21,219 bases of DNA, taken from the IMG/VR virus record IMGVR_UViG_3300020187_000262, positions 1 to 21,219 of that record; one strand, 5' to 3'. Under the pieces are notes generated by a model. It was not told the origin of the DNA. It saw only the letters and a list, made by a program, of their open reading frames with translations, and ran no database searches. The first letter of the stretch is position 1. Each line of letters opens with the position of its first letter. The stretch is from a virus. This document shows, piece by piece, positions 1-21,219 of this stretch. Position numbers and translations under genes: made by a program.

Positions 1-1
1 A

Positions 2-913
2 GACATTAAAATCCTATCAGGTAAATATGGATTGGTAGATATGAACACTGTTATTAAACCTTATGATGTCTATTTAGGGAATAAAACAGCTACTCAGAAA
101 AAAGATTGGGCTGAAGGTGTTTATGAAGTATTAGCCAGAAGATATGATTTAGACAATACAGTATTCAAATTCCTAGCAGGTGCTGATTATACTCATTACT
201 TAGAAGAAATGCTTCCTAAATCTAAAGATGTTTTAGAAGGAAAAAAAGTAGGTGAGAGATTACAATATCTAGATAAGTTTGAGGCTATAGGTGAGATTGA
301 TGGTACTGAGGTTTATTCAACTAAAGAAGAAGCAATCCAAGTAGCTGAGATGAAAGGATGTTCTGGGTACCATACACATGAACTAGAAGGTAAAACAGTC
401 TACATGCCATGTGAAAAACACACTGATAACTATAAAGATTCATTTTCAAAACTAGATGAACAGCAGATAGTAATAGGTCCATTAATGAAACCTAATATGT
501 TGATTCCTAGATTAGATGATGATGGTGAAAAATACCATGTATACTTTACAGCTGATACTATCAAGAAAATAGCTTACAAGATGGTAAAAGATAAGTTGAT
601 AGATAAAGTAAACCTAGAGCATGATAACATGGAATCTGTAGATGCCTATTTAGTTGAAAGCTGGATTATAGATGGTGAGAATGATAAATCTAAGAACTAT
701 GGATTTAATCTCCCAGCTGGAACATGGATGGGAATGTATAAGATTGAAGATAAAAATATCTGGAATGAATATATCAAGACAGGACTAGTCAAAGGATTCT
801 CTGTAGAGGGAATGTTTGGAAAGTATGCTATGGATAAATGTAAAGCAGGTAAAACATGTGCCTGTGGATTATCAGAGTCTGGAATGTGTGATGGATCTCA
901 CTTAACTAAATAA
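2..913 (+). CDS. Prohead protease, XkdF-like, fused to DUF6884-like and CDGSH-like segments (5' partial)
   Basis: The frame is open from the window edge, so the true start lies upstream. The internal TTG at 32 is not a convincing start because the domain already begins before it. Counting from the first visible codon, residues 3-95 resemble a DUF6884/YaaA-like domain (ILSGKYGLV, IKPYDVYL, FLAGADY and a closing VGERLQYL). Residues 119-137 carry a GCSGYH...YMPC Cys/His segment also met in other phage proteins. Residues about 150-275 match the XkdF-type putative phage serine protease (VNLEHD, then AGTWMGM, then KGFSVEGMF), with H207 and S267 as candidate catalytic residues. The C-terminus carries C286-x-C288 and C296-D-G-S-H300, close to a CDGSH iron-sulfur motif but one residue shorter between the cysteine pairs. 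Such proteases cleave scaffold and capsid during head maturation, and scaffold and capsid genes follow. The protease call is fairly sure. The roles of the flanking domains are inference. Confidence 0.8.
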   Translation, partial: DIKILSGKYGLVDMNTVIKPYDVYLGNKTATQKKDWAEGVYEVLARRYDLDNTVFKFLAGADYTHYLEEMLPKSKDVLEGKKVGERLQYLDKFEAIGEIDGTEVYSTKEEAIQVAEMKGCSGYHTHELEGKTVYMPCEKHTDNYKDSFSKLDEQQIVIGPLMKPNMLIPRLDDDGEKYHVYFTADTIKKIAYKMVKDKLIDKVNLEHDNMESVDAYLVESWIIDGENDKSKNYGFNLPAGTWMGMYKIEDKNIWNEYIKTGLVKGFSVEGMFGKYAMDKCKAGKTCACGLSESGMCDGSHLTK

Positions 914-914
914 T

Positions 915-2122: not shown

Positions 2123-3031
2123 ATGGCATTAGATGTAACAGGGCTAACTGACTTTAACAATGAAGTTGCAGGTGAGCTCTTAGTAAAATCAGTATATGGT
2201 GGTTCCACTATGGAATACATTACTGTAAAAGAGGGTGTTAAGCACCAAGAACCAATCAATTTGATGGAAGTAGATCTACAGATCCAAGGTGGAACATGTG
2301 TATCTAACCCTTCAGGTTCATTAACATTCACTCAAAGAGATATCACAGTTTGTCCAAGAACAAGCTTTGATGGTATCTGTTTGAAAGACATGGATAAAAA
2401 ATACTTAGGTATTGCAGATCTAGAACCAGGCTCATACAATGAGACTTTTGCTCTAGCTTCTAACTACTCTGAGTTGTTAGTAAATAACTTCCAGAAGAAA
2501 AATGATCAATTTTTGTGGGCAGGTGACCAAGCAGGTTGTTCAGCAGCAGATGGTTTGATCTCAATCATTTCAGGTTCAACTGCTGGTGTAGTAACTGCAG
2601 GTGGTGCAGCTGTAACATTAGCAAACATGGATGCTATGCTTGGTGCATTGGATTCAGATGTAGCAGACAGAGAAGACATTACTTTCTTCATGTCAGTACA
2701 AGGTTTCAGAACTTATGTTACTGCATTAAGAACTGCTAATAACTTCTACTTTGACCCAGCTTCTATTGAAAACAGAGGTGGTATCTTAGAGATGGCTTAC
2801 CCATTCTCTCCAGGTGTTAAAGTTGTAGGAACTGTTGGTCTTAATGGATCAAACAGAGTAGTATTAGGACCTGCTAAACAAATTGTTGCAGGTACTGACT
2901 TGATGAGTGATTTCTCTGAATTTCAACTATGGTATGACATAAATTCTGACCAATTGAAGCACAGAATCTCAACTAAATTAGGTGTAAATGTTGCCTACCC
3001 TTCTTTCTGGGTAAGTAATGATGAAGCTTAA
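2123..3031 (+). CDS. Major capsid protein
   Basis: A 302-residue protein directly after the scaffold-like gene (6-base gap). Features that recall major capsid proteins of Bacteroidota phages include an N-terminal DFNNEVAGELLVKSV, the EGVKHQEPINLMEVDLQIQ segment, paired cysteines in GGTCV and ITVCP, and a long glycine- and alanine-rich middle. No signal peptide or membrane segment is visible. Neighbours (protease, scaffold, portal, connector) fix the context, and an HK97-type fold is expected from the order protease-scaffold-capsid. The capsid call is strong from position. The family call is from memory of similar sequences. Confidence 0.82.
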   Translation: MALDVTGLTDFNNEVAGELLVKSVYGGSTMEYITVKEGVKHQEPINLMEVDLQIQGGTCVSNPSGSLTFTQRDITVCPRTSFDGICLKDMDKKYLGIADLEPGSYNETFALASNYSELLVNNFQKKNDQFLWAGDQAGCSAADGLISIISGSTAGVVTAGGAAVTLANMDAMLGALDSDVADREDITFFMSVQGFRTYVTALRTANNFYFDPASIENRGGILEMAYPFSPGVKVVGTVGLNGSNRVVLGPAKQIVAGTDLMSDFSEFQLWYDINSDQLKHRISTKLGVNVAYPSFWVSNDEA

Positions 3032-3720: not shown

Positions 3721-4179
3721 ATGCTACAATTTAATAAGTCCCTTGGTTCCAACAAAAATGCTTTGTATCTTGACACAGTCAACACTGGTTCAGGTTATTA
3801 TGATTCATTAAAAGTAGCATACTCTCAATCATATGATCAGTCTAGTGGTGTATTTGATGTAACAGCAACTTCAATTCCTAATGCTTATAGAAACTATTTA
3901 ATTATAGAGAATTCAGGTAGTGTTGTTCCTTCACCAAGTGGTCAATATGATGTTGAAGTTTATACAGCTACAGAAGTAAAAGTACAAGCAACTTGGATAG
4001 AGGCATCAAAAACATGGACTGCTGAAAGTGATATATGGAGTGATGTAGGTGCTGAAATTATTACATTATCAGATTTACTTTACAGTGACAGAGCATTTAT
4101 TTCAGGTAGTAATGAGAGTAGCATAACAACATATGTATCTTCAAATGAAGATGCAAGATATACAACATACAATGGATAA
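3721..4179 (+). CDS. Small virion structural protein, unknown role
   Basis: A 152-residue protein beginning MLQFNKSLGSNKNALYL and rich in serine, threonine, tyrosine and aspartate, with predicted beta structure. It contains no membrane segment or recognisable catalytic motif. It lies between the tail-tube-like gene and the portal and overlaps the portal start by eight bases, so it is almost certainly a virion or assembly protein. I do not recognise a family with a proven role. Confidence 0.6.
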   Translation: MLQFNKSLGSNKNALYLDTVNTGSGYYDSLKVAYSQSYDQSSGVFDVTATSIPNAYRNYLIIENSGSVVPSPSGQYDVEVYTATEVKVQATWIEASKTWTAESDIWSDVGAEIITLSDLLYSDRAFISGSNESSITTYVSSNEDARYTTYNG

Positions 4180-5413
4180 ATTAAAATTTTCATCAATTAA
4201 GAAGGAATTCTCTCAAAGAGTCAATGTGACTGAGAAAAAGGGAGACCATTATGTTAAATTTGGTCAGTACAATGATTTTCCAAATGAGTTAATCAACCTA
4301 TACAATAATTCATCTATTCATAACACTTGTGTTAATGCTGTAGTTGATGCTATTAAAGGTGAAGGATTAGTATCAGAACCAAGTTTTGTAATAGAACAAG
4401 CTAACACTGATTCAGAAACATGGAATTCAATCTATGGTAAGTTAGCACAAGATTATAAATTATATGGAGGTTTTGCTCTAGAAGTTATCTGGAATAAGGC
4501 AAGAACTAGACCAGTAGAATTCTACCATATAGACTTTAGCTATTTAAGAGCAAAGGAAAAAAATTACAGAGGTAAAGTACCTGGTTACTATATCTCTGAC
4601 TCATGGGATGATTACAGATATGGACAAAAGATAGAAGATCTACCATACTTACCATGTTACAACCCTAAAACAGCAGTAGAGGAACCAAAACAATTATTTG
4701 TATTCCAACCATATGCTCCAGGACAAAAATATTACCCATTACCTGATTATGTAGGTGCTTTAAGAGTAATTGATCTTGATACTGAGGTAGACAATTTCCA
4801 TATTAACAATATTAAAAATGGTTTAGCACCTTCACTTGCTATCACTACCTTCACAAATGCTGATGAGGATGAGAGACAAGCAATTGAAGGAATGTTACAA
4901 GACCAATATTCAGGAACAGATAATGCTGGTTCTCTAATTTATATAGATGTAGATTCACCAGAGAATGCTCCTGTAATAACTCCAATCCCACAGAATGGAG
5001 CTGATGATTACTACTATAATGTAAATGAAATGGTAGTACAGAAAATATTAACTGCTCATAGAATCACATCTCCTATGATTTTAGGAATTAAAACACCAGG
5101 ACAACTTGGAGGTAGAGATGAGGTTGTAGATTCTTATTTACTGTTTGTAAACACAGTAGTAAGACCATTCCAGCAGGATATATTAAGTGTTGTTGAATTA
5201 TTATTAGAAGCACAATACCCAAATATAGACATATCAGTTGGTGTACAACAACTTAAGTTATTTGCTGATGGTGAAGAAGAAGTAGATGTTGTAACTTCTA
5301 TTGATGCTGAAGTAGGAGCTGATAGTGAATTAGAAGCTGAAATTGAAAAAGCTGATGATGAAGCTAAGGGTGGTAATGTAAATGAACCAATAACAGAATT
5401 ACCAACAGTATGA
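4172..5413 (+). CDS. Portal protein
   Basis: The portal forms the twelve-subunit ring through which DNA is packaged and to which the neck attaches. The N-terminal part has the portal-like run HYVKFGQYNDFPNELINLY, then NNSSIHNTCVNAVVDAIKG, and a middle segment (MVVQKILTAHRITSPMILGI) typical of phage portals. The C-terminus is very acidic (glutamate- and aspartate-rich from about residue 370). I start it at the ATG at 4172 (MDKLKF), giving 413 residues. The in-frame ATG at 4133 would add 13 residues deep inside the previous gene and lacks a natural leader. The stop overlaps the connector start by four bases (ATGA). The portal lies downstream of the capsid gene and far from the terminase, an unusual order. 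Confidence 0.8.
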   Translation: MDKLKFSSIKKEFSQRVNVTEKKGDHYVKFGQYNDFPNELINLYNNSSIHNTCVNAVVDAIKGEGLVSEPSFVIEQANTDSETWNSIYGKLAQDYKLYGGFALEVIWNKARTRPVEFYHIDFSYLRAKEKNYRGKVPGYYISDSWDDYRYGQKIEDLPYLPCYNPKTAVEEPKQLFVFQPYAPGQKYYPLPDYVGALRVIDLDTEVDNFHINNIKNGLAPSLAITTFTNADEDERQAIEGMLQDQYSGTDNAGSLIYIDVDSPENAPVITPIPQNGADDYYYNVNEMVVQKILTAHRITSPMILGIKTPGQLGGRDEVVDSYLLFVNTVVRPFQQDILSVVELLLEAQYPNIDISVGVQQLKLFADGEEEVDVVTSIDAEVGADSELEAEIEKADDEAKGGNVNEPITELPTV

Positions 5414-6026: not shown

Positions 6027-8537
6027 ATGGGAAGGAATTTAACTAACTTACACATTTCAGAATCATTTCAGTATCTAACACAGATATCTGGTTCAGAACT
6101 TACTGATGGTTTAGGTGTAGATATTGATTCATTAAATATTACAGCATCTACAGCTACATCAGCATCACATGCAGTAATAGCAGATAGTGCTTTAACTGCT
6201 ACAAGTGCTTCATTAGCTACAACAGCTTCACTTGTAAGTACAGCTGATGGTAGTTCAGAAAGTGGTATTCACTACTTACCATTTGTTGATGTAAGAGCAT
6301 CTGATGGTCAACAACTATTTACAGATACTGAACTTCAATATAATCCAGCTACAGATACAATAGAGGCAAACCTAACAGGGACAGCATCATTTGCAGATAC
6401 AGCAACAAGTGCTTCATTTGCAACAACAGCTTCTTATGCTATTTCATCTTCAGCAGATGATTTAACATTACAACAAGTAACAGATAATGGTGCTACAACA
6501 ACTAATGATATTAGTATTGATGGTAGAATATATGGAGTGGCTGGTATTTCAAGTCCTTCAGCAGGAGGTACTTATACTATAAGAGGTGGTACTGTAAATC
6601 ATACATTGCAACTACAAGGTAATGATGTTACATCTACAAACTCTATTAAGTTAGACAATACAAATGGAATCCAGATTAGTGGAAGTTTAGGCATTCAAGA
6701 TGATATTACAATAGCTGGTGATTTAACAGGTTTAGCATCAAATGTAAATGTAAATAGTATTACAGCTAGTTTTGCTTCATTTACTTCAGCAAGTATTGGA
6801 AGTCTAAGAACAGTAACAGGTTCAGCAGTAATCATTGGTGATGAGTTTATTATACTAAATGCTGATACACCAACTGCAAGATATGCTGGTATAAAAGTAT
6901 ATGATTCAGGTTCAGGAACACCAGTTACAGCATCTTTAGAATGGGATGGTTTAAGTGATAATTGGGTTTTAGTTGAAGAAAGTGGTAATAGTGGAGTATT
7001 ATTAACAGGTCCTACTGGTTCTAAAGGTAGTGAAGTATTACCTACAGTAAACACATTACAAAAAGGTGGTGGACATCATACATTAATAAATTCAAGTATT
7101 AGTGATGATGGAACATTAGTAACAATAGATGCTAATGTAAGTGCTTCAGGATATGTAAGTGCTTCAACATTTATAGGTGATGGTTCAGGATTAACAGGTG
7201 TTGGTGCTTTCCCATTCACAGGTTCAGCAGAGATTACAGGTTCACTTGGTGTAACAGGTAGTTTTAGTGTTGAAAATAATACAATAGGAGGAACAGAGTT
7301 ATTTGCTGGTTTAGGAGCATCATTAGCAGCTAATAATGGTAATCTTCAACTTGGTGGTGTTAGTAATACTTTAGACACAAATGGTTGGGGTAGAGTTGTT
7401 ATAGGTGGTAGAAGTAATAATCTATCAGGTGGTAATGGTGTCTCTATTTGGGGTGGATTTGCTAATTCACTTTCAGGTGGAGAAGATAATGCTATCATGG
7501 CTGGTAGAAGTAATACTATCTCTGGAAATGGGGAATGGATTGTAATTGCTGGTGGTAGAAGTAACACTGTCTCTTCAGCTAACTACTCTGCTATAGTAGG
7601 TGGAGAAAGCAATACAATCACAAGTGGTCAAAAATCTGTTATTTTAGGAGGTGATGGATCTTCTATTGGTAACAACCTTAGAAGTTTTATTATAGGTGGT
7701 GAAGGTAATAGAGTTGTTACAGGACAAGGTGGTGGTGTTGTTGGTGGATTTGATAACCAAATTGATCATGATAGAAGTGTCATTATAGGTGGTGCTAGTT
7801 TATCTACAACTAAAGCCAATGAAGCAGTAGTTCCAGACTTAACAATAAATGGAACAGTAAGTGGTTCAGCTGGAGTAGTTGATTTTGAAAGTGATGTTCA
7901 AATCACAGGCTCAGTAACAGCAGGTGATGCCTTAAATGTCAATAGTGGAACAGATTCAATGCTACTCTCTATTGATAGTAATACTACAGGAACAAGAAAT
8001 GGTATACTTGGTGGATATCAAAACACAGCAAGTGATACAGATTCAGTTGTATTAGGTGGATTTGGTAACACAGCAAGTGGATTAAGAAGTGGTATATTAG
8101 CAGGACAAAGTAACACAGCTTCACATATTAGAAGTGTTGTATTAGGTGGTATTAGCTTATCTACAACAAAACCAGATGAAGCAGTAGTTAATCACTTAAC
8201 CACAAATGGTACTGTAGTTCAGGATGTAAAAGCACTATCAATAGTAGCCAATGCAGCAGAGTTAGATGCATCAACAGGTAACATGTTTACTTTAACACTA
8301 CAGAATGGTGTAGATACAGAACTACAACTTTCAAATCAAACAGCAGGACAAACATTTAGTGTTCAAATCACTAATAATGCTACAGGAGCAGGAACTATTA
8401 GTTTTGATTCTCAGTTTTTATTTGAAGGAGGTACAGCATTTACAGCTACAGCAGCAACAAATGCAGTAGATGTTTTAACATTTACTTGTTTTGCAGGAGG
8501 TGATGTAGTGTGTGTAAGTGCCAAGAATTTTAGTTAA
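6027..8537 (+). CDS. Tail fibre or receptor-binding protein with YadA-like beta-roll repeats
   Basis: An 836-residue repetitive protein. The N-terminal part has Ala/Ser/Thr repeats typical of phage fibre shafts (TATSASHA, then GTASFADTATSASFATTASY). From about residue 455 to 590 it carries about eight short repeats of the form V-I-x-G-G-x-x-N-x-[IV], as in YadA/hemagglutinin head domains, expected to form a left-handed trimeric beta-roll. A module containing SLSTTK, then VV, then L-T-x-N-G-T-V occurs twice, near residues 584 and 703, after separate repeat blocks. The C-terminal 100 residues form a predicted beta domain ending VVCVSAKNFS. It starts three bases after the connector stop. Function inferred: trimeric fibre contacting the host surface. 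Confidence 0.75.
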   Translation: MGRNLTNLHISESFQYLTQISGSELTDGLGVDIDSLNITASTATSASHAVIADSALTATSASLATTASLVSTADGSSESGIHYLPFVDVRASDGQQLFTDTELQYNPATDTIEANLTGTASFADTATSASFATTASYAISSSADDLTLQQVTDNGATTTNDISIDGRIYGVAGISSPSAGGTYTIRGGTVNHTLQLQGNDVTSTNSIKLDNTNGIQISGSLGIQDDITIAGDLTGLASNVNVNSITASFASFTSASIGSLRTVTGSAVIIGDEFIILNADTPTARYAGIKVYDSGSGTPVTASLEWDGLSDNWVLVEESGNSGVLLTGPTGSKGSEVLPTVNTLQKGGGHHTLINSSISDDGTLVTIDANVSASGYVSASTFIGDGSGLTGVGAFPFTGSAEITGSLGVTGSFSVENNTIGGTELFAGLGASLAANNGNLQLGGVSNTLDTNGWGRVVIGGRSNNLSGGNGVSIWGGFANSLSGGEDNAIMAGRSNTISGNGEWIVIAGGRSNTVSSANYSAIVGGESNTITSGQKSVILGGDGSSIGNNLRSFIIGGEGNRVVTGQGGGVVGGFDNQIDHDRSVIIGGASLSTTKANEAVVPDLTINGTVSGSAGVVDFESDVQITGSVTAGDALNVNSGTDSMLLSIDSNTTGTRNGILGGYQNTASDTDSVVLGGFGNTASGLRSGILAGQSNTASHIRSVVLGGISLSTTKPDEAVVNHLTTNGTVVQDVKALSIVANAAELDASTGNMFTLTLQNGVDTELQLSNQTAGQTFSVQITNNATGAGTISFDSQFLFEGGTAFTATAATNAVDVLTFTCFAGGDVVCVSAKNFS

Positions 8538-8555
8538 TACACAGATATATTAATA

Positions 8556-8590
8556 GTGGGAGGTATGTGATATAACCACATATTTCCCAC
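8556..8590 (+). other. Long stem-loop between the two fibre genes
   Basis: A 14-pair stem (8556-8569 with 8577-8590, two G-T wobbles) closes a seven-base loop. No T run follows, so it is not a classical terminator. It lies 19 bases before the next ATG and may control mRNA processing, stability or initiation. Confidence 0.6.
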
Positions 8591-8609
8591 AAATAAACAC
8601 ACATATAAT

Positions 8610-9440
8610 ATGTTTATACCATTTGGATTTATGGCAGGTACTTCAGCAGCACCACCATCATATGATACAGATGCTCAAGCATTTTTTACAGCAGTAGAAG
8701 GTGGAGGTGATACTTTAACTACTACAGAAAAAGATGGGGTTAATCAACTGGTATTAGATTTGAAGGCAGATTCAATATGGAGTGATATTCTGTATGCTTA
8801 TCCTCTTGTAGGTGGAACAGCTACAGCACATAAGTGGAACTTAAAAAATCCACTAGATACTGATGCTGCATATAGAGTAACTTGGGGTTCAATAATGGCA
8901 CATAATAGTCTTGGTATTATAGGAGATTCAAATGACCCAGATAGTTATGGTGATACTCACTATAATCCAAGTGTAGCAAGTGCTACAGAACATACTATTG
9001 CTATGTATTTTAATCAAGGATTAGTAGCTACTCCTGCTAATGAATATGATTATGGTGCATTTATAAGTGGTGATGATAATATGATTTCATTTGGATTTAA
9101 TAATCAAACTACAATGTATGCTTGTTGGCAGAATACTAGTTATAAAACTACTACCAGTGGAACTTACACAAAGAGTGTATATGCTTCTTCCAATGATGGT
9201 ACTAATACAACTATTTACCAAGATGGTTCACAACTCACTTCAGTAGCTCAAGGATATGATCCTACAAATTTATCTTATTATCTATTAGCATCTCATAGAA
9301 CAGGAACTCCTGGTGTTACTGGAGAGACTGGTAGAGGTATTGGTATAGCTATTGCCTATAGTGTAGGTTTAGATTCAACAGAACACTCAAATCTAAGTAC
9401 TGCAATAACTGATTATGTAACAAGTTTATCAAGAAACTAA
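8610..9440 (+). CDS. Tail-associated protein with LamG/concanavalin-like fold
   Basis: A 276-residue protein. The start has a hydrophobic MFIPFGFMAG but no proper signal peptide. Residues about 18-50 form a helical region (DAQAFFTAVEGGG, then EKDGVNQLVLDLK). The next part (YAYPLVGGTATAHKWNLKNP, then DTDAAYRVTWG) matches a pattern common in phage tail and appendage proteins with LamG-like jelly-roll domains. The rest is beta-rich with YTKSVYASSNDG and IYQDGSQLTS, as expected for a carbohydrate-binding sandwich. It follows the fibre, so a receptor-binding or accessory-fibre role is likely. Confidence 0.6.
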   Translation: MFIPFGFMAGTSAAPPSYDTDAQAFFTAVEGGGDTLTTTEKDGVNQLVLDLKADSIWSDILYAYPLVGGTATAHKWNLKNPLDTDAAYRVTWGSIMAHNSLGIIGDSNDPDSYGDTHYNPSVASATEHTIAMYFNQGLVATPANEYDYGAFISGDDNMISFGFNNQTTMYACWQNTSYKTTTSGTYTKSVYASSNDGTNTTIYQDGSQLTSVAQGYDPTNLSYYLLASHRTGTPGVTGETGRGIGIAIAYSVGLDSTEHSNLSTAITDYVTSLSRN

Positions 9441-9452
9441 ACTAAACAAAAG

Positions 9453-9611
9453 ATGGATTCAATGACAAAAGATAGTGTAGCTAACCTAACAACAATAGGT
9501 GGACTGGGAATGACAATGACAGATATAACAGGTGTAATGACATTATGTGTGTTATGCACTGCATTAATACTTAATATTCAGAGAATCTATACATTTTTCA
9601 AAAAGAAATAA
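9453..9611 (+). CDS. Small membrane protein, holin candidate
   Basis: A 52-residue protein. It has a polar start (MDSMTKDSVANL), a glycine-rich turn (GGLGMTMTD), one clear membrane helix (about residues 25-41, VMTLCVLCTALILN), an arginine at the interface and a basic end (FFKKK). It is the last gene of the structural run and sits just before a double terminator. Size, single helix and position fit a phage holin, but no endolysin is next to it, so the role is inferred. Confidence 0.55.
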   Translation: MDSMTKDSVANLTTIGGLGMTMTDITGVMTLCVLCTALILNIQRIYTFFKKK

Positions 9612-9612
9612 C

Positions 9613-9645
9613 ATTCCCTTAGGGTGCTACCTTAGGAATACTTTT
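9613..9645 (+). terminator. Terminator after the structural gene run
   Basis: ATTCC (9613-9617) pairs with GGAAT (9635-9639), extended inward by TTAGG/CCTTA with one bulge and one mismatch, followed by ACTTTTC. It begins two bases after the holin-candidate stop. Confidence 0.55.
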
Positions 9646-9704
9646 CATATTTGTGGAAAACTGGAGAATAAGAACAATAGATTTAATACATTTTGGAAAG
9701 TGAA

Positions 9705-9724
9705 AGGGGAGCAAATGCTCCCCT
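9705..9724. terminator. Hairpin between convergent genes, probable bidirectional terminator
   Basis: AGGGGAGC (9705-9712) pairs perfectly with GCTCCCCT (9717-9724) around an AAAT loop. It lies between plus-strand structural genes and minus-strand accessory genes, where both transcripts need to stop. T runs are weak on both sides. Confidence 0.6.
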
Positions 9725-9752
9725 CTCTAACTAACAAATAACAAATAAAAAC

Positions 9753-9956
9753 TTATTCAGAACCTTGATTTAATTTTTTTTCAATTATTTGGGCAGTTTC
9801 ATAAGTACCATATGAAGCATATTCTGTAAATGCCATTGCTACACCTATTACTTCTGTTAATTTTGTAATATCATTATTATTAGAATATTCAACTGCTGCT
9901 TTAAGCATTGATTGTCTAACAATAGATTCATGTGTGTTGTTGTTGTTGTAAGCCAT
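9753..9956 (-). CDS. Small hypothetical protein in the inverted cassette
   Basis: A 67-residue soluble protein with an asparagine run near the start (MAYNNNNTHESIV) and amphipathic helices (LKAAVEYSNN, then AQIIEKKLNQ). It is downstream of the nuclease-like gene on the same strand, 29 bases apart, so they likely share a transcript. I recognise no family. An antitoxin, inhibitor or immunity role beside a nuclease is possible but unsupported by motifs. Confidence 0.5.
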   Translation of the reverse strand: MAYNNNNTHESIVRQSMLKAAVEYSNNNDITKLTEVIGVAMAFTEYASYGTYETAQIIEKKLNQGSE

Positions 9957-9985: not shown

Positions 9986-10489
9986 TTATTCTTGGCTAAG
10001 CCAAGTTTTATTTTTCATATTCCATATCTTTCCATAATTAGTAAACCAGTAATCTGGTATTCTATAGTATGGTTTATTATCTCTACCAAATCTACCAGCT
10101 ACAATTAATTGGTCTAATCTTGAATATATTTCATCTACATTTATAAACCACATTACACCACTATCTCTTTGTTGTTGACCATATACACATATTAACACTG
10201 GTAGTTGTTTATACTGGTTATATATGTGAGATTTGAACATAGTATACCTCTTAGGTAAGTCAGTTCTTAATAAAGTAGATTTTTTATGTTCAATGAATTG
10301 AAATGGAGTCCTAAAATCAGGATGTTTTCTCCATGTATCATCATAACTGGTGTAAATGTCTCTAGTTGGTCTAAATACCATTTTTTTAGGTATTTCAAAT
10401 CCTCTAGATGATATAAGATGTCTATACACCATATCTTCATATCTCTTACTATCTGCTAATTGATCATTAAATTGTAAATCTCCTGCCAT
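9986..10489 (-). CDS. Probable PD-(D/E)XK-type nuclease, accessory
   Basis: A 167-residue protein read from the ATG at 10489 (MAGDLQFND). A longer frame starting at 10537 is rejected because its extra 16 codons cover the promoter -10 box at 10509-10514. The key segment is KHPDFRTPFQFIEHKKS, in which P-D-F and then I-E-H-K have the spacing and order of a PD-(D/E)XK nuclease core. A helix before it (SKRYEDMVYRHLISSRGF) and beta strands after it (LPVLICVYGQQ, VMWFINVDEIY) suit that fold. It may act as a nuclease or Holliday-junction-resolvase-like enzyme. The motif is convincing by eye, but the family is not confirmed. Confidence 0.55.
   Translation of the reverse strand: MAGDLQFNDQLADSKRYEDMVYRHLISSRGFEIPKKMVFRPTRDIYTSYDDTWRKHPDFRTPFQFIEHKKSTLLRTDLPKRYTMFKSHIYNQYKQLPVLICVYGQQQRDSGVMWFINVDEIYSRLDQLIVAGRFGRDNKPYYRIPDYWFTNYGKIWNMKNKTWLSQE
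9991..10015 (+). terminator. Plus-strand terminator-like hairpin inside the nuclease gene end
   Basis: CTTGGCTAAGCCAAG (9991-10005) is a perfect inverted repeat followed on the plus strand by TTTTATTTTT. Read on the plus strand it looks like an intrinsic terminator that would block read-through antisense to the minus cassette. On the minus strand it has no T run and lies in the last codons of the nuclease gene. Confidence 0.45.
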
Positions 10490-10508
10490 GTTTTTATTTG
10501 TTAATATT

Positions 10509-10818: not shown

Positions 10819-11403
10819 ATGGAGGGGGAGGGAACAGACTTAGAAACAATAATAACTGATATGGTTAAAGATAGATTGAATGAATGGGTGAAAGAAGAGT
10901 ATGACTGGATAGTTAGACAAATCACTAAAAATATAGCTAAAGGAGGGATGAGTGAATATGCTCTAGACTTAGCCCACCACATCATCCTTGACCTATACAA
11001 CATGGATGAGGATAAGATAGCTGGAATGTTAGATAATGGTAAGTTGAAATGGTATGTCCTCTCAGGAGCTGGGTTGCAGTTAAGAAGTGGAACATCACCA
11101 TTCTATAGAACTCATAGAAAGTTAAAAATGTCAGCTAGAAGTGGAGTGATAGAAAGTGATGCAGACAATCCCTATTATAATGAAGGGTATGAGATGGAGG
11201 ATTTTGATGGTGAGGAAACATTATCAGTATGTCTTGAGAAAGCAGTCAACCAACTTGATTGGTACCTCAAAGCTCTATGGGATAAGAAATTCAACTCAAA
11301 CTGGACACTCCAGGAGATATATGAGCATTATAATATAGGGAAAGTCCACCTAATAAAGGATCTAAATAAGGCAATAGCTGAGGTAAGAGAAATTTGTAAA
11401 TAA
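10819..11403 (+). CDS. Sigma-70-factor-like protein
   Basis: A 194-residue acidic protein. The segment YALDLAHHIILDLYNMDEDK, then LDNGKLKWYVL and a later SPFYRTHRK, resembles region 2 of small sigma-70-type proteins in Bacteroidota phages. The C-terminal part (WTLQEIYEHYNIG, then LIKDLNKAIAEVREI) looks like a region-4-type helix-turn-helix. It is the first gene after a strong divergent promoter and heads the run to the terminase genes, as expected for a late-gene regulator. The ATG at 10861 (MVKDRLNEW) has a more native A/T-rich leader and could be the true start. The sigma assignment is moderate and could be another DNA-binding regulator. Confidence 0.5.
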   Translation: MEGEGTDLETIITDMVKDRLNEWVKEEYDWIVRQITKNIAKGGMSEYALDLAHHIILDLYNMDEDKIAGMLDNGKLKWYVLSGAGLQLRSGTSPFYRTHRKLKMSARSGVIESDADNPYYNEGYEMEDFDGEETLSVCLEKAVNQLDWYLKALWDKKFNSNWTLQEIYEHYNIGKVHLIKDLNKAIAEVREICK

Positions 11404-12270: not shown

Positions 12271-12473
12271 GCCCATTCAAAAAAGGACATAATGTAAATG
12301 AAGGTAGAAAAAGAGATACCTCAAGTAATGAAAAGAAACAAGGTAATGGTTCTTTGAATACCTACTATTATAGTAAAAGTAGATTCAAAAAAGGAGGAAA
12401 GTATCTTGATCCTGAGAGAGTAGATTATTACATTAACAATGATATGGATTTAGGAGAATTATTAGATGACTAA
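12267..12473 (+). CDS. Small basic hypothetical protein
   Basis: A 68-residue, lysine- and glycine-rich N-terminal part (SPFKKGHNVNEGRKRD, later SRFKKGGKY) with an acidic end (DMDLGELLDD). It overlaps both neighbours by a few bases, so it is translated as part of the run. It is possibly nucleic-acid-binding. No family recognised. Confidence 0.5.
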   Translation: MSPFKKGHNVNEGRKRDTSSNEKKQGNGSLNTYYYSKSRFKKGGKYLDPERVDYYINNDMDLGELLDD

Positions 12474-12957
12474 GGAGTGTAAAGATTGTGGTAAGGAACT
12501 ATCAGTAGATATGTTCCATTACTCAAATAAGAAAAAAGGTGTACTAAAATCATATTGTAAGAATTGTAGTTATGATAGAGTACAATCTCATATAGCTAAA
12601 GATCCAATAGCCTATAAATACTATATGAACAGGTATTACCAGGAAAATCCTGAGAAATACCCAGGTAATCACATATCAAAATCAATACCTAAACAATGTG
12701 GTGTCTATAAGATATCATGTGAGTTAACTGATGATTCTTACATTGGATGTTCTGCCAATATTAGAAGTAGAATCTATAAGCATAGAAAAGCATATGGTAA
12801 GGGTAAACAGAAAAATCTATATAAACTAATTAAGGAATATGGTTGGGAAGCATTTGATGTGGAGATATTGGAGTTATGTGATAGAGAAATTCTATTTGAT
12901 AGAGAAACACACTACATCCAGTTACATAAACCTAATCTAAATAAAAACAAAGTATGA
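12466..12957 (+). CDS. Zinc-ribbon plus GIY-YIG endonuclease (homing-type)
   Basis: A 163-residue protein with two parts. The N-terminus has a four-cysteine zinc ribbon (C5-x2-C8 and C31-x2-C34). The C-terminal part is a GIY-YIG nuclease: G79-V-Y, then S-Y-I-G at 91-94, the arginine-containing helix NIRSRIYKHR (about 99-108), LYKLIKEYGWEAFDVEIL, and the metal-binding glutamate E147 in DRETHYI. Zinc-ribbon/GIY-YIG pairs are typical of free-standing homing endonucleases in phages, which cut a related genome and spread by repair. It lies within overlapping small genes ahead of the terminase. Confidence 0.75.
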   Translation: MTKECKDCGKELSVDMFHYSNKKKGVLKSYCKNCSYDRVQSHIAKDPIAYKYYMNRYYQENPEKYPGNHISKSIPKQCGVYKISCELTDDSYIGCSANIRSRIYKHRKAYGKGKQKNLYKLIKEYGWEAFDVEILELCDREILFDRETHYIQLHKPNLNKNKV

Positions 12958-13174: not shown

Positions 13175-13576
13175 ATGGCTGGAACTAAATTGAGTAAAGC
13201 AGAAACAGATGCTAGGGTAGATAAGTGTATGGAGTTAAGATACAACTTAGAGAACCCAATGTTACATAGAGAATGGTTAACATTCTGTAAAAAGGAGTAT
13301 AATGATAAGAGTGAAAAACAATACACTGCTTATTGGATGACTGCTAAGGAGAGATATAATGAGGGATGGAAAGCCAAATTAAATGGTATGCTTGATCCAG
13401 CTATGAATTCACTTATTGAACTAATGGCTAGTGATGATGAGAAAGTAAGACAGAGAGCAATTGATCAGATTGTCAAATACACTGGTAATGATATTGAGAA
13501 GATAGAAGCCAAAATTGAAGGTAACATTGAGTTAAACTGGGGAGAACAAGAGACTGGATATGGTAGAACATTATAA
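13175..13576 (+). CDS. Terminase small subunit
   Basis: A 133-residue protein directly ahead of the large terminase. The N-terminal half is helical with a possible helix-turn-helix (SKAETDARVDKCMELRYN, then EWLTFCKKEYND, then YTAYWMTAKERY). A second helical part (LIELMASDDEKVRQRAIDQ) and a KYTG element precede an acidic C-terminus. These suit a DNA-recognising small terminase that forms a ring and recruits the large subunit. It overlaps the start of a small embedded gene. Confidence 0.7.
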   Translation: MAGTKLSKAETDARVDKCMELRYNLENPMLHREWLTFCKKEYNDKSEKQYTAYWMTAKERYNEGWKAKLNGMLDPAMNSLIELMASDDEKVRQRAIDQIVKYTGNDIEKIEAKIEGNIELNWGEQETGYGRTL

Positions 13577-13724
13577 AGGATATAAGATATTTGATACAAT
13601 GCATGACAAACAAAGGTATTTCCTTGTGTTTGATCCTAATAATGAAGTAGTATACAAAACAAACAAGAGAGAGAATGCAAGTAACTTTATTTACACCTCA
13701 TGTAGGGCAAAAAAAGATAATTGA
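13560..13724 (+). CDS. Small overlapping gene, 54 residues
   Basis: This frame starts inside the end of the small terminase gene and ends 50 bases inside the large terminase gene. The protein (starting MVEHYKGYKIFDT, containing RYFLVFDPNN and EVVYKTNKRENAS) has balanced composition and AT-rich third positions in the part outside the overlaps, and resembles short phage proteins with a KGYKI...YFLV-D pattern. The 98-base gap between the terminase genes would otherwise be unusually long here. I take it as a likely real gene of unknown function. Confidence 0.55.
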   Translation: MVEHYKGYKIFDTMHDKQRYFLVFDPNNEVVYKTNKRENASNFIYTSCRAKKDN

Positions 13725-14907
13725 TGGATTTGCTGATACTGAACATAAGTTTGGAGTAGTAAGTACTGGTAGACAGTTTGGTAAATCATTATTAGCACAA
13801 AACCTATTATTGTATTGGTTATTGAAAACACCTAATCAGAAAGCAGGATGGGTGTCTCCAATATTTACTCAGTCTAAAAAGGTATTCAAAGAACTAGAAG
13901 CAGCATCATTCAAGTTAATTAAATCCAGTAATAAAGCAGATTTAACTATTACATTTATAAATGGTTCAACTGTTCAATTTTTAGGTGCTGAGAGGTATGA
14001 TTCAATTAGGGGTTTCTCATTTAACTATATGGTTATTGATGAGGCAGCATTTATTAAGGAACAAGCAGTTAATGAAGCAATATTTCCTACACTATCAGCT
14101 ATAGGGAAAAAATGTTTAATCATATCTACACCTAAGTCAAAAAACTGGTTTTATACCCACTACCTTAAGGGGCTTGATGATGGTGGTGACTACATCTCAT
14201 TCATGGGTATATCAACAGATAATCCACATATAGATGCTGAATTTATTGCTGAACAGAGTAAGTCTTTACCACCTGATATATTCAAACAAGAATATTTAGC
14301 TCAATTTACTGAGAGTGGTAATGATGTATTTACTGGAGTAGATATGGTATGTAATATAAATCAATGGAATGTACAACAGCCAAACAGAAGATATTATTTT
14401 GGACTTGATACTGGATTGTCTAATGACTATTCAGTCCTCACAATTATGGATGAATCAGGCAGAGTATGCAAAGTTATTAGAGATAATGGTAAGTCATTTG
14501 AAGAACTATCACAAATATTCATTGCTGAACTCAGAAGATACTCCATACATGGTGGTTATATTGAAACCAATGGGATTGGTAGAGCTATGTATGAATTAGT
14601 CTCTAAACAGATTAAAAAGTCTCAAGCATTCATTACTACCAATGATAGTAAGAATCAAGGTATTAGAAACCTGATTTACAAGATACAGAATGGTGAGTTG
14701 GAATTACCTGATGAAAAACTATTTCCACACTTAAAACAAGAACTACAAGCATATAGTTATAAGATTTCAGCTAATGGAACAATGACATTTAATGCTCCTA
14801 ATGGTTATCATGATGATTGTGTTATGTCACTTATGTTTGCAAATGAAGCTAGAGAAAAACTTGCCTTATCCAAAGGAAAATTGTATATTGGATCAATGAA
14901 TAGATAA
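13675..14907 (+). CDS. terL: Terminase large subunit
   Basis: A 410-residue packaging motor and nuclease. The ATPase part shows a Walker-A-like STGRQFGKS (30-38, K37), a Walker B YMVIDEA (118-124, D122-E123) and the coupling motif ISTP (150-153). The nuclease part shows D245 in YFGLDTGLSNDYS, E297 in YIETNGIG and D380/D381 in GYHDD, the expected metal-binding triad. It hydrolyses ATP to pump DNA through the portal and cuts concatemers. It is the last gene before a strong terminator. No frameshift or missing catalytic residue is seen. Confidence 0.95.
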   Translation: MQVTLFTPHVGQKKIIDGFADTEHKFGVVSTGRQFGKSLLAQNLLLYWLLKTPNQKAGWVSPIFTQSKKVFKELEAASFKLIKSSNKADLTITFINGSTVQFLGAERYDSIRGFSFNYMVIDEAAFIKEQAVNEAIFPTLSAIGKKCLIISTPKSKNWFYTHYLKGLDDGGDYISFMGISTDNPHIDAEFIAEQSKSLPPDIFKQEYLAQFTESGNDVFTGVDMVCNINQWNVQQPNRRYYFGLDTGLSNDYSVLTIMDESGRVCKVIRDNGKSFEELSQIFIAELRRYSIHGGYIETNGIGRAMYELVSKQIKKSQAFITTNDSKNQGIRNLIYKIQNGELELPDEKLFPHLKQELQAYSYKISANGTMTFNAPNGYHDDCVMSLMFANEAREKLALSKGKLYIGSMNR

Positions 14908-16643: not shown

Positions 16644-16996
16644 TGGCTGATCAATTTGTAAATTTAGATAGTGAGTTAGTAGGACTACAGGTAGCAATTG
16701 CTCAAACAATGAGGAAACTTGCTCCTAGTAGGACAGGTAACCTTAGAAGAAGTATCAGACCACAAAAACTTATTGATACACCTCAAGGTATTCAAGCACC
16801 TATTACTTATATTAACTATGGTCAGTTCCCTGATTTTGGTACTAAGTATCAATCAGCACAACAATTTACAGAAAGATCACAAGAAGAAGAATTACAAAAA
16901 CAAGCAGATGCTATTGGTATGGCAGCAGGTAAGGATGTACTTAATATGCTAGATTTACCAACTGAGATAGACTTAACATTACAAGTAAAAGTATAA
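16643..16996 (+). CDS. HK97-gp10-like neck or tail protein
   Basis: A 117-residue protein with the HK97-gp10 hallmarks: an N-terminal helix, then LAPSRTGNLRRSIRP, then a strand, and INYGQFPDFGTKYQSAQQF, followed by a helix with EEELQKQADAIG. Proteins of this family act at the head-tail junction or in tail completion. It overlaps both neighbours by one base in TAATG sequences, so translation is coupled. Confidence 0.65.
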   Translation: MADQFVNLDSELVGLQVAIAQTMRKLAPSRTGNLRRSIRPQKLIDTPQGIQAPITYINYGQFPDFGTKYQSAQQFTERSQEEELQKQADAIGMAAGKDVLNMLDLPTEIDLTLQVKV

Positions 16997-18354
16997 TGGC
17001 AATTAATTTAAGACAAAACAGCACATCACCAAACATTGGTAATAGCAATCTAGTACATGCTGTTACCTCTAATTCATCATCACAAGCACAATTCAAATTT
17101 GTAGCTGATATTAATGATGCTAATGGTGATTTATTACAGAGAATAAAACAACAACCTAACCCTAATACTACTGGTGTATTTGATTTTGGAAATATTATTC
17201 CAACTTATTTAGGTCCAACTGATGAGGTATGGAAAATTGCTAATGTAACTCAAAATACAGCATGTGGTAAGGATTTTCAAATTAGATTTGGTGAGGAATA
17301 TGCATCCACAGTAACAGGATTTACATCATTGTATACAGGTGATACTCCAGATGCAGCAGGTAATCCTAATGTATCAGGTAGTGATTATATTTTCCTAATT
17401 GATGGAGTTACTAATCCAAATGATTTAGTAAATTGGAATTGGAATAGTGGTTCAAAATACAATGAAGAAGATCCATTAGATGATGTCACATTTACACATC
17501 AAAATGGTTTAACATACTTTAATACTTCAAGTGTTAGAATAGGTGATTACCATACTATCAGTTTTCTAAATGGTAACTTAGGTGGAGAAGGAACATTAGA
17601 TGTAAATTCAGCACAAGATGTATTTGCTGTTATTTACAGACAATATGATGCTACAGGTAGTTTATTAGATACAGATACATTATTCAATACAGCAGCAGGA
17701 CCTAGAACATTACAAACTCAATTTTGGAGTGATGTTTATACCACACAAGATGAAACAACAAGATTAATTCACTGGCCTGCTGGACCACAGAATATAGAGG
17801 ATGCAGGTGTACCTATTTTATTAGATGATACAGGGTACTATACAATGACATTCTATGCTCAAGCAACTGATACATTTTCTAATCTAGATGGTGTTTGGGG
17901 AGAATATAGATTTGATATTGACAATAAAAATTGTGGGTATGATGGAGTAAGATTTGCTTGGAAGAATGAGTATGGAGTATGGGATTACTTTAATATGGGA
18001 TTAGCAGAATCTACTACTTCAACAATTGAAAGAGAATCATATGAACAATCATTTGTTGATTACTCAGCTACTAATACTGTCACATATAATAAAGATAGAA
18101 GAGGTCAATCACAATTCCAAAATAGAATAAATAAAGTAAGAACAGCACAATCAGATTATTTGAATCAAACAGATGCTGATAACTTAAGAGAATTATTCTT
18201 CTCAACAAATGTGTATGTTCAGGATGGTACTGAATTTTTACCTGTTGTAATTGAGAATGCTTCTGTAAGAGAAAAAACAAACCCAAGATCACAAAAACTA
18301 TTTACATATACTGTTAACTACAGATATGCTAATGAAGAAAGACCAAGAGTATAA
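16996..18354 (+). CDS. Large tail structural protein, distal-tail-like
   Basis: A 452-residue, beta-rich, acidic protein. Its C-terminal half carries CGYDGVRFAWKNEYGVWDYFN, a motif recalling phage tail proteins of Bacteroidota phages, then RAQ-type polar repeats and a closing KLFTYTVNYRYANEERPRV. The first half is serine/asparagine-rich with several GDI/GNI turns. It sits between the gp10-like gene and the baseplate-like gene, a distal-tail position. It may be a Dit-like protein or a fibre base. The assignment is tentative. Confidence 0.5.
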   Translation: MAINLRQNSTSPNIGNSNLVHAVTSNSSSQAQFKFVADINDANGDLLQRIKQQPNPNTTGVFDFGNIIPTYLGPTDEVWKIANVTQNTACGKDFQIRFGEEYASTVTGFTSLYTGDTPDAAGNPNVSGSDYIFLIDGVTNPNDLVNWNWNSGSKYNEEDPLDDVTFTHQNGLTYFNTSSVRIGDYHTISFLNGNLGGEGTLDVNSAQDVFAVIYRQYDATGSLLDTDTLFNTAAGPRTLQTQFWSDVYTTQDETTRLIHWPAGPQNIEDAGVPILLDDTGYYTMTFYAQATDTFSNLDGVWGEYRFDIDNKNCGYDGVRFAWKNEYGVWDYFNMGLAESTTSTIERESYEQSFVDYSATNTVTYNKDRRGQSQFQNRINKVRTAQSDYLNQTDADNLRELFFSTNVYVQDGTEFLPVVIENASVREKTNPRSQKLFTYTVNYRYANEERPRV

Positions 18355-21219
18355 TGGTAATAATTAGAGCAAAAGATAACTTTGGTAATGTAGCTGACTT
18401 AGATGTCCTACAGGAAGCAGAACTTAGATGTGATGTATCAGCTATTGAATCAGGTGATATAGGAAGAGTATTTGGTATCTCATCACAAGAGTTTATGTTG
18501 CCTGGTACTGATAATAATAATCAGTTCTTTGGTAATATATTTGATTTAGGTGCTGAACCATCTGTAGCATTAAACCATACAGTGTTTGCTTCTCTAATGG
18601 TAGATGGTAATGAAATATTCAGTGGTAAAATGTATATCAACAATGTCCTTACAGATGATGAGGGTTATGTGATGTATAAAACATTGATAATTAATGAAAC
18701 CATTGATTTCAATACTAGGATAGAGAATATCTATATGAATGAACTAGACTTATCTAGTTTAGATCATGATTTAACTCTAGCAAATATTACAGGTAGTTGG
18801 GATGGTGATTTAGTAAATGGTGATGTAGTTTACCCATTAGTAGATTATGGTAGTTCTCCTATCTCAAATGTAGCCAATGGAGCTATTGGTGATGCTACTT
18901 TCAATAATGAAGATTTCCCTTTAGATGTAGCTGATTTCAAACCAGGTATTAAAGTAAAATCATTAGTAGATGCTATATTTGATCAGGTAGATTACAACTA
19001 TTCTTCATCATTCCTTGATAGTGATTATTTTGATAAGTTATTTATCTTATCTACAGCTAATGAACAAAGAGGTATAGGTGAGTCTCCAATACAATATTCC
19101 ACACAAGTAAGATTTGATAATGGAGGTACACCACAACCTATAAATGATGGTGTAACTGCTACTGTATTATTCCCTACTGAAGTATATGATAATGGAAATG
19201 CTTATGATCCAGTAACTGGTATCTACACTGTACAAGCAGATGGTGATTATAATATCAATACAACTATTAGATTATTTACTACTCTACCTCCATCTCCTCT
19301 TAACCTAAGAAAGGTAACAGCTAAATTATTTGTAAATGCTTCTTTAGTAGCACAATCAATTGATTTATCTGCATTTGCTCAAACAACAGTTGGTATAAGC
19401 AAATCTATACCAAACTTAGAGATTGGTGATGAGATTAAGATAACAGTAACAAATGAGACTATAAGTAGATTTAGTGGTAATGTTGTAGCAGGTTCAAATG
19501 GTTTCCTAAACCAACAAACTAACTTTCTAAATGTTGCTTCAGTAGGTGCTTTATATGCTGGTACTGTTAACATGAGTAGAATGTTTGGTGATGAAGAAAC
19601 AGTAGTAGATTTCCTACAAGGTTTGATAGAGAAATTCAATCTAGTAATTGAACCAAAACAAGATGAAAGGAATATTCTTATTATTGAGCCTTATAATACA
19701 TGGAAAGAAAATGGTGAGATAGTAGACTGGAGTGATAAATTAGATAATTCAGTTAGAAAGTCAATTAGAGGTACAATGAATGATCAAGCTAAGGTTATTT
19801 CATTTGCTGATAAGGAAGATGATGATATTCTAAACACATACACTCAAGAAACATATAAAAAGATATTTGGTGAATCATTATATTTTGATGATGGTGATTT
19901 AACTCAAGGTAAAAGAGAGATAGGTGGTTTCTTCTCACCTACTCCTATAATGTCAATTGATGGAACAAATTTAGATGTTATACCTCACTTATACAAGAGA
20001 GAAAATGATATCAAAACAGCTCTTAAATTCAACTATAGAATATTACACTTTAATGGTAATAAGGAAATCCAAGATGTAACAGCATATGATGATACAGGTG
20101 CTAATCAAGGTAAAGGATATTGGGTAAGAGATGTAAATACATTAACTAAAACATTAATTACCAGTTATGGTTCATTCCATTATTTGGATATTGATGTTGA
20201 TGATAATTCTCCAGACTTTGACACATCAAGAGATTTGAATTGGAATAATAGAAACCAAGTTCATTTCTCATCACCAGTATTAGCTGATGGTTATTTTGCT
20301 AAAAGAGATGCTGTATATGAGTATTGGGCATTCTATCTAAATGATCTATACCATCCTGAGTCTAAAATGTTGACTTGTAATATTTATTTTACTCCTGATG
20401 AGTTAAAAGATATTCAATTAAATGATAAGATTTTTATTGATGGTCATTATTACAGAATCAATACTATCAAGTCATTTGACTTAACTAAAGATTCAAGTGT
20501 AGAAGTTGAATTAATCAAATCACCAGTTAGACAATTCCAATTCCCAGTAAGAAGAGTATACAATGATACTACTTCAGGAGGTACAGGTGCTGGTTCAGGT
20601 GGTACTTTTAATGATGTTACTTTAGATGATGGCTCTATTACTGCTGGTGGTAGTGGTAATTATGTTTTTGTAGATACTAATTTACCAGTAACAGGTTCAG
20701 GTAACCAAGAGTTAGTAGGTAGAGTAGCTCCATTAGATGGATTTACATTATATGATTCAGGTATTGATAGTGGTTCAGTAGTATGGAAAGCATCTCCACC
20801 ACAAAATACAAATGGTATTAGACCTATTAAATCATTAGGTAATAATGATATTAACTTTGGTGCTAATGAAGTAACAGCTATTGGAAATAATAATACTATA
20901 AATGATCAAACTAGTGTTGTTAATATTCAGGGTACAGGAAATTCAGTTGAATCATTCTCCCAATATGTTCAAGTAGTAGGTGATAATAATACTATCAAAG
21001 ATTCTAGTAATAAGTCAGCTATACTACAATCAACTACATCAGAAATTAGTGGGAATACCACACTATCAACCATTATAGGTGGTGAGGACACCATAATCAG
21101 TGGCTCAGATAAGTCTGTGGTTATAGGCCAGGATTTAACAATTGAAGGAGGTAATTCAAATATTGTAGTAGGTAACTTTGATACAACAACTAAAGTAGTA
21201 AAAGACTTAATCAACACTG
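18354..21219 (+). CDS. Baseplate or tail protein with C-terminal beta-roll repeats (3' partial)
   Basis: An open frame of 955 codons with no stop before the window end, starting in a TAATG overlap. The N-terminal part (QEFMLPGTDNNNQFFGNIF, then SGKMYINNV) and a middle part (ETVVDFLQGLIEKFNLVIEP, ILIIEPYNTWKENGEIVDWS) resemble a baseplate-hub-like tail protein of Bacteroidota phages. A GTGAGSGGT linker near residue 743 precedes a fibre-like segment. The last 130 residues carry beta-roll repeats (AIGNNNTIND, VVGDNNTIKD, IIGGEDTIISG) and a TTTK-VV module like that of the 836-residue fibre. The size suggests a hub with an attached receptor-binding tail. The 3' end is missing. Confidence 0.7.
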   Translation, partial: MVIIRAKDNFGNVADLDVLQEAELRCDVSAIESGDIGRVFGISSQEFMLPGTDNNNQFFGNIFDLGAEPSVALNHTVFASLMVDGNEIFSGKMYINNVLTDDEGYVMYKTLIINETIDFNTRIENIYMNELDLSSLDHDLTLANITGSWDGDLVNGDVVYPLVDYGSSPISNVANGAIGDATFNNEDFPLDVADFKPGIKVKSLVDAIFDQVDYNYSSSFLDSDYFDKLFILSTANEQRGIGESPIQYSTQVRFDNGGTPQPINDGVTATVLFPTEVYDNGNAYDPVTGIYTVQADGDYNINTTIRLFTTLPPSPLNLRKVTAKLFVNASLVAQSIDLSAFAQTTVGISKSIPNLEIGDEIKITVTNETISRFSGNVVAGSNGFLNQQTNFLNVASVGALYAGTVNMSRMFGDEETVVDFLQGLIEKFNLVIEPKQDERNILIIEPYNTWKENGEIVDWSDKLDNSVRKSIRGTMNDQAKVISFADKEDDDILNTYTQETYKKIFGESLYFDDGDLTQGKREIGGFFSPTPIMSIDGTNLDVIPHLYKRENDIKTALKFNYRILHFNGNKEIQDVTAYDDTGANQGKGYWVRDVNTLTKTLITSYGSFHYLDIDVDDNSPDFDTSRDLNWNNRNQVHFSSPVLADGYFAKRDAVYEYWAFYLNDLYHPESKMLTCNIYFTPDELKDIQLNDKIFIDGHYYRINTIKSFDLTKDSSVEVELIKSPVRQFQFPVRRVYNDTTSGGTGAGSGGTFNDVTLDDGSITAGGSGNYVFVDTNLPVTGSGNQELVGRVAPLDGFTLYDSGIDSGSVVWKASPPQNTNGIRPIKSLGNNDINFGANEVTAIGNNNTINDQTSVVNIQGTGNSVESFSQYVQVVGDNNTIKDSSNKSAILQSTTSEISGNTTLSTIIGGEDTIISGSDKSVVIGQDLTIEGGNSNIVVGNFDTTTKVVKDLINT

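What the first reader, a model, noticed from the sequence alone, without database searches (positions are those of the whole stretch)
1..21219. No CG dinucleotide seen anywhere in the window
Reading every row and every row junction I found no CG on the plus strand (and therefore none on the minus strand, as CG is self-complementary). Every arginine codon is AGA or AGG, and no codon ends C before a G-starting codon. Other palindromes such as GATC, GTAC, GGCC and CTAG are present, so the loss is CpG-specific, not general GC avoidance. At roughly one-third GC, hundreds would be expected. Possible causes are long-term 5mCpG deamination under a CpG methyltransferase, a CpG-targeting restriction or defence system, or strong selection on codon pairs. 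TG and CA look abundant, which fits deamination.
Basis: seen in the sequence. Interest (0 to 1): 0.88.

Follow-up and report, generated by a model that had tools for sequence, protein, structure and literature searches.

The report
Coastal phages with no CG dinucleotides
A widespread lineage of small coastal-sea bacterial viruses has removed every single CG pair from its DNA, while close relatives have each removed other short words such as AATT or GATC, which suggests that their unknown hosts carry DNA-cutting defences, one of which recognises just the two letters CG.

Summary
It is not an artefact. Thirteen further related IMG/VR contigs, each from a different sample, are also CG-free: 0 of about 2,518 expected in 91.5 kb of distinct sequence. 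The one partial exception, L084, has CGs only in an Illumina-adapter/chimeric end. CG-containing relatives have O/E 0.3–0.9. CG-free portals form one clade (100/98), while MCP and TerL genes that cross the clade boundary have lost all CG. Amino acids are kept (CGN Arg becomes AGR) and lost CGs are not channelled into TG/CA, so deamination fails. Sister lineages each lack other words completely: AATT 0/297, CTAG 0/93, GATC, CATG, GTAC, GCG/CGC, TGAG/CTCA, GAGC/GCTC. Asymmetric words vanish on both strands, so selection acts on double-stranded DNA. Best explanation: total elimination of restriction sites by an apparently unmodified small phage family, the CG clade facing a defence that reads the bare dinucleotide CG. 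Rival: the phage's own lineage-specific PD-(D/E)XK-like nuclease (9986–10498, minus) cuts CG. Host and enzyme are unidentified.

The parts
1..21219 (.). CG-free DNA, whole record (0 CG; 566 expected by base composition, about 351 by comparison with unaffected relatives)
32..913 (+). prohead protease (Peptidase_S78_2), truncated 5', with DUF6884-like segment
   Evidence: Pfam
2123..3031 (+). major capsid protein (by synteny and conservation); clade members carry MCPs of mixed ancestry, all CG-free
4133..5413 (+). portal protein; portals of the CG-free contigs form one clade (100/98)
   Evidence: Pfam Phage_portal; tree
6027..8537 (+). tail-fibre-like gene; tracts 85-90% identical to CG-containing sisters, CG-poor there too (module exchange)
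9986..10498 (-). PD-(D/E)XK-like small protein (HPD...FIEHKK) found only in CG-free contigs; candidate phage-encoded nuclease (rival explanation); fold not confirmed
   Evidence: AlphaFold model unusable
10819..11403 (+). sigma-factor-like conserved protein (weak)
12466..12957 (+). GIY-YIG homing-type endonuclease; also in CG-containing sisters, so not the discriminating factor
13175..13576 (+). small terminase (putative, by position)
13675..14907 (+). large terminase; used to find relatives
16996..18354 (+). tail protein
18354..21218 (+). large tail protein, runs off the record end; in relatives followed by tape measure and the protease, which closes the gene order into a ring

Best explanation
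This is complete restriction-site elimination, taken to a dinucleotide. The phages belong to a small (about 24-31 kb) coastal-sea family that appears to carry no protective DNA methylase of its own, and each lineage survives by lacking the words its hosts' DNA-targeting defences recognise. For the clade of the window that word is the bare dinucleotide CG, so its hosts most likely carry a restriction-type system that cuts (or otherwise destroys) DNA at CG, or at 5mCG after methylation. Shown: absolute absence; clade specificity; genome-wide reach including genes of different ancestry; preserved amino acids; the same kind of total absence of other words in sister lineages; action at dsDNA level in those sisters. 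Inferred: that the agent is a host nuclease, that it reads only CG, and its identity.
For: 0 CG in 91.5 kb of distinct sequence, 2,518 expected; 14 contigs including the window, other near-family contigs O/E 0.3-0.9 and none in between. One portal clade. MCP and TerL genes cross the clade boundary and mirror the rule: L115 MCP CG 0 / GTAC 8 / GATC 3 versus L192 CG 33 / GTAC 0 / GATC 0; L086 MCP CG 0 / AATT 6 versus L169 CG 26 / AATT 0. Sisters lack other words totally: G001 AATT 0/297, GATC 0/80, GAGC/GCTC 0/52 and 0/33; G002 CTAG 0/93; L161, L181, L192, L214, L240 several words; L212 GCG 0/65 and CGC 0/51. Asymmetric words vanish on both strands although genes lie mostly on one. Near-identical CG-free pairs: 142 substitutions, 13.4 CGs expected to arise, none seen. 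Amino acids kept, spectrum not deamination-like. Precedent for the mode: complete or almost complete elimination in about one-tenth of viral genomes (PMC6286503), phage K without GATC (PMC6532042).
Against: No host is known and no CG-reading restriction enzyme was found; I know of no described 2-bp CG cutter, only CG methyltransferases such as M.SssI and M.MpeI (PMC5944983). Restriction specificities usually vary between strains, yet the CG rule is constant over a deep, widespread clade. A lineage-specific nuclease gene in the phage offers an alternative.
Confidence: 0.66

Rival explanations
1. Self-imposed rule: the phage encodes a CG-cutting nuclease (the PD-(D/E)XK-like gene at 9986-10498, minus) that destroys host or competitor DNA, and protects itself by having no CG. 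Chloroviruses use 2-4 bp viral endonucleases against host DNA but protect themselves by methylation.
For: The protein family occurs only in CG-free contigs (window/L001, L003, and a diverged version at the same locus in L083); no relative in other family ORFs, viral contigs or cultured phages. It has conserved D...PD...ExK residues. The CG rule is constant over a deep clade, as expected of a vertically inherited cause. Chlorovirus precedent PMC7019647.
Against: L002, 98% identical to L003, has another gene in that place, and L158 has an HNH gene there, so universality is not shown. Sisters lacking four or five words have no matching number of nucleases. Fold not confirmed.
Confidence: 0.15
2. 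Mutational erosion: CpG methylation in the host followed by 5mC deamination to TG/CA.
For: TG and CA are somewhat raised (symmetrised TG 1.25 versus 1.12 in sisters).
Against: Exact zero; Arg CGN kept as AGR by transversion; NCG went to NCA and NCT about equally; 4-fold C before G went to A as often as to T; other lineages purge AATT equally.
Confidence: 0.03
3. RNA-level or translational selection (an RNase cutting CG in mRNA, codon-pair bias, missing tRNA-Arg).
For: CG is palindromic, so strand cannot be tested directly for CG itself.
Against: Non-coding DNA is CG-free too (0 of 93); every codon frame is affected; in sisters asymmetric forbidden words are absent from both strands although genes are mostly on one.
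Confidence: 0.04
4. Several ordinary 4-bp systems together (ACGT, CCGG, GCGC, TCGA, CGCG) removed CG piecemeal.
For: Sister lineages do lack several 4-bp words at once, including GCGC or CGCG.
Against: 12 of 16 NCGN contexts are not palindromes and are equally absent (ACGA alone about 338 expected in the pool); no clade member keeps any CG context.
Confidence: 0.07

Closest known systems
Type II restriction-site avoidance in phages (Rusinov et al. 2018, PMC6286503)
   Same: Elimination of short recognition words from an otherwise ordinary dsDNA phage genome; complete or almost complete elimination in about a tenth of viral genomes.
   Different: Here the word is a dinucleotide, 0 of about 2,500 expected across a clade; sisters also purge asymmetric 3-4 bp words, whereas the reported cases are mostly sites of orthodox Type II systems.
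Staphylococcus phage K, no GATC (PMC6532042); phiX174, no GATC (PMC5014478)
   Same: Absolute absence of one short word, attributed to Sau3A restriction (phage K) or linked to mismatch repair/MutH (phiX174).
   Different: 4-bp word, single phages; here a 2-bp word fixed in a whole clade, with different words in sister clades.
CG-specific prokaryotic methyltransferases M.SssI and M.MpeI (PMC5944983)
   Same: Show that bacteria can have enzymes reading the bare CG dinucleotide.
   Different: Methyltransferases only; a partner nuclease reading CG is not described to my knowledge.
Chlorovirus endonucleases such as Nt.CviPII and CviJI (PMC7019647)
   Same: Virus-borne nucleases with 2-4 bp specificity used against host DNA (relevant to the rival).
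   Different: Self-protection there is by DNA methylation, not by absence of sites.
Nonlabens phages P12024S/L
   Same: Nearest cultured portal proteins (31% identity); hosts are marine Flavobacteriia.
   Different: Distant; 35.7 kb genomes; no nucleotide-level relative of the window in the cultured-phage collection.

Membership tests
Restriction-site elimination (anti-restriction by absence) | Specific short word absent far beyond base composition | tested here: met
   0/566 in window, 0/2518 in clade
Restriction-site elimination (anti-restriction by absence) | Absence independent of reading frame, strand and gene ancestry | tested here: met
   non-coding 0/93; MCP and TerL genes of mixed ancestry all CG-free; asymmetric words in sisters lost on both strands
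Restriction-site elimination (anti-restriction by absence) | Host nuclease with matching specificity | not testable with these tools
   host unknown; genome-contig scans found no relative
Restriction-site elimination (anti-restriction by absence) | Word is a 4-6 bp palindrome of an orthodox Type II system | tested here: not met
   word is the dinucleotide CG in all 16 contexts; hence 'works like', not a textbook Type II case
CpG decay by 5mC deamination | CG lost to TG/CA specifically | tested here: not met
Virus-encoded restriction nuclease with self-protection (chlorovirus-like) | Nuclease gene in all members that follow the rule | tested here: inconclusive
   present in window, L003, L083; place taken by other genes in L002 and L158
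Virus-encoded restriction nuclease with self-protection (chlorovirus-like) | Cleaves at CG | not testable with these tools
   needs biochemistry

The most novel reading that the evidence does not exclude
Marine (probably flavobacterial) hosts carry an undescribed immune system that recognises the bare CG dinucleotide, strong and common enough to have forced every CG out of a widely distributed phage clade; more generally, the forbidden words of this phage family are a direct read-out of hidden host defences, including asymmetric 3-4 bp and 2-bp specificities.
Probability: 0.55. Interest if true: 0.86.

Novelty: new variant of a known kind. Interest (0 to 1): 0.76.

Why it matters
A whole phage clade without one CG implies a DNA-targeting defence (or a viral weapon) that reads two bases, shorter than any restriction nuclease I know of that acts as a barrier. 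It also gives natural CG-free viral genomes, shows how completely unmodified phages can rewrite themselves, and makes host defence specificities readable from uncultured phage sequence: one can predict that a host of the window phage has CG methylation or a CG nuclease, and that hosts of G001-like phages have AATT and GATC systems.

Tried and rejected
Deamination, codon and mRNA explanations (tested, rejected). Assembly or sequencing artefact: rejected, since 14 contigs from different samples agree and contigs from several of the same samples (e.g. 3300020185, 3300007541, 3300017913, 3300011254) have normal CG. L084's 8 CGs turned out to be an Illumina adapter plus a chimeric end. GIY-YIG nuclease as the cause: rejected, also in CG-containing sisters. 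AlphaFold of the PD-(D/E)XK-like protein from a 3-sequence alignment gave pLDDT 42 and was not used. Pfam, NCBIfam, PHROGs, PADLOC and PDB searches gave no family for it. Host search through genome contigs with portal and terminase found nothing. Literature searches for CG-free phages and CG-cutting restriction found none. The 235-aa candidate nuclease of CTAG-free G002 had no family or PDB match.

Full report
Observation. The window contains no CG at all (0; 566 expected from C and G content), while every other dinucleotide is near normal. It is a complete IMG/VR virus record and encodes structural and packaging genes of a tailed phage: protease, capsid, portal, fibres, terminase, tail proteins. 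Against the word frequencies of unaffected relatives the expectation is still 351. CG is the only word of two to four bases that is missing among those expected more than eight times.

Relatives. A terminase search brought 80 viral contigs. The same phage (L001) and two relatives at 78-79% amino-acid identity (L002, L003) have exactly zero CG; the next relatives at 68-70% have O/E 0.54-0.93. Portal, capsid and sigma-like queries added L083 (17.0 kb, 0 of 486), L085 (0/305), L086 (0/201), L087, L115 (0/184), L158, L159 (0/226), L168 and L171, all with zero, and L084, whose eight CGs all lie in the first 154 bases: an Illumina adapter followed by a stretch 95% identical to the CG-containing L095. 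Pooled over ten distinct contigs: 0 of 2,518 expected in 91.5 kb, with 0 of 93 in non-coding DNA. There is a gap between zero and about 0.3: no intermediate contig was found in the near family.

Phylogeny and gene exchange. The seven CG-free portals form one clade (100/98), but CG-free terminases sit in two places and CG-free capsid genes in several. L115's capsid gene groups with CG-containing L192; L169, which is CG-containing and AATT-free, groups with CG-free L086. So genes have crossed the boundary between CG-free and CG-containing lineages, and every gene now in a CG-free genome has lost all CG. The shared genes mirror each other's rule: L115 capsid has CG 0, GTAC 8, GATC 3; L192 has CG 33, GTAC 0, GATC 0; L086 has CG 0, AATT 6, and L169 has CG 26, AATT 0. 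In fibre tracts 85-90% identical between clades, the sister side is CG-poor (G001 has 0-7 CG per kb over about 6 kb there against mostly 10-27 elsewhere) yet AATT-free, which reads as import from the CG-free pool followed by removal of AATT. The direction of transfer is inferred.

Mutation or selection. Between near-identical CG-free contigs there are 142 substitutions, of which 13.4 should have made a CG; none did. Comparing the closest sister genes codon by codon, arginine CGN stays arginine (AGR) in 70%, the same as AGR to AGR, which needs a transversion; NCG becomes NCA 33%, NCT 29%; four-fold C before G becomes A as often as T. Composition at four-fold sites with a C at the second position agrees; at other four-fold sites before G the lost C appears mostly as T, so the evidence there is mixed. 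Overall this is what exclusion of CG from sequence space gives, not deamination. These comparisons are partly saturated at silent sites, so they speak for the end state rather than the path.

The family-wide pattern. Counting other words showed that sister lineages have each purged different words completely: G001/L103/L104 lack AATT (0/297 in G001), GATC, GAGC/GCTC and TGAG/CTCA (at most two copies left); L089 lacks AATT, CATG, GATC; G002 lacks CTAG (0/93); L161, L181, L192, L214, L240 lack several; L212 lacks GCG and CGC; distant members G003, G005, G010, G011 lack none. The CG-free clade has all these words at ordinary levels. AATT holds no cytosine, so no cytosine chemistry explains it. 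The asymmetric words are missing from both strands although most genes are on one strand, so the agent acts on double-stranded DNA. The natural reading is elimination of sites read by host restriction-type systems, a known strategy: complete or almost complete elimination in about a tenth of viral genomes, mostly orthodox Type II sites (PMC6286503); phage K lacks GATC (PMC6532042); phiX174 lacks GATC (PMC5014478). What is unusual is the size of the word. CG in all sixteen NCGN contexts is absent, so the agent reads two bases. CG-specific bacterial methyltransferases exist (PMC5944983), but no CG-reading restriction nuclease turned up in the searches.

Rival: a phage weapon. A PD-(D/E)XK-like protein (window 9986-10498, minus; homologue in L003; diverged homologue at the same place in L083) occurs only in CG-free contigs among all family ORFs and had no other relative in the viral or cultured-phage collections. 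Chloroviruses carry 2-4 bp endonucleases that degrade host DNA (PMC7019647). A phage could do this with CG and need no methylase. Against it: L002, nearly identical to L003, has another gene there and L158 an HNH gene, and the many-word sisters do not carry matching numbers of nucleases. The structure prediction was unusable.

Limits. Hosts are unknown; nearest cultured portals are from Nonlabens phages (31%), which suggests Flavobacteriia. Two genome scans found no relative. Contigs were found by homology, so CG-free phages of other families would have been missed. Several contigs are near-duplicates (L001 of the window, L002/L003, L086/L087/L171). That the source samples are coastal rests on my own knowledge of the IMG sample numbers, not on a tool result.

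Noticed in passing
G001 (25,979 bp, L105), G002, L089, L161, L181, L192, L212, L214, L240: Each sister lineage lacks its own set of short words completely (AATT, GATC, CATG, CTAG, GTAC, GCG/CGC, TGAG/CTCA, GAGC/GCTC, ACTG/CAGT).
   Followed up: yes
window 1-21219; G001, G002, G005 records: Gene order closes into a ring of about 24-31 kb with no recognisable replication, integrase or methylase gene; how these phages replicate is open.
   Followed up: partly
L105 8551-12642, L103, L092, L088, L096, L100: CG-free islands over fibre genes inside CG-containing sisters, read as recent imports from the CG-free pool and so a signature of module exchange.
   Followed up: partly
L084:1-154: Illumina adapter sequence and a chimeric stretch at the contig start, the only CGs of that contig.
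   Followed up: yes
G001 8281-8928 and 9340-9804; L161 11289-12211; window 32-275: DUF6884-like proteins or segments (Pfam match shown for the window copy, others by likeness), single, double or fused to the protease; function unknown.
   Followed up: no
L142:5167-5874 (minus), in CTAG-free G002: 235-aa protein with a possible PD-(D/E)XK motif, unique in the family and without database match; a candidate CTAG nuclease to test.
   Followed up: partly
L018/L035 (record G003, 31,285 bp): Two different large-terminase genes 29 kb apart that fall in different parts of the tree; likely a chimeric contig.
   Followed up: no
L040, L041, L039: More distant phages with low but non-zero CG (O/E 0.22-0.32) and, in L040/L041, high TG/CA.
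   Followed up: no
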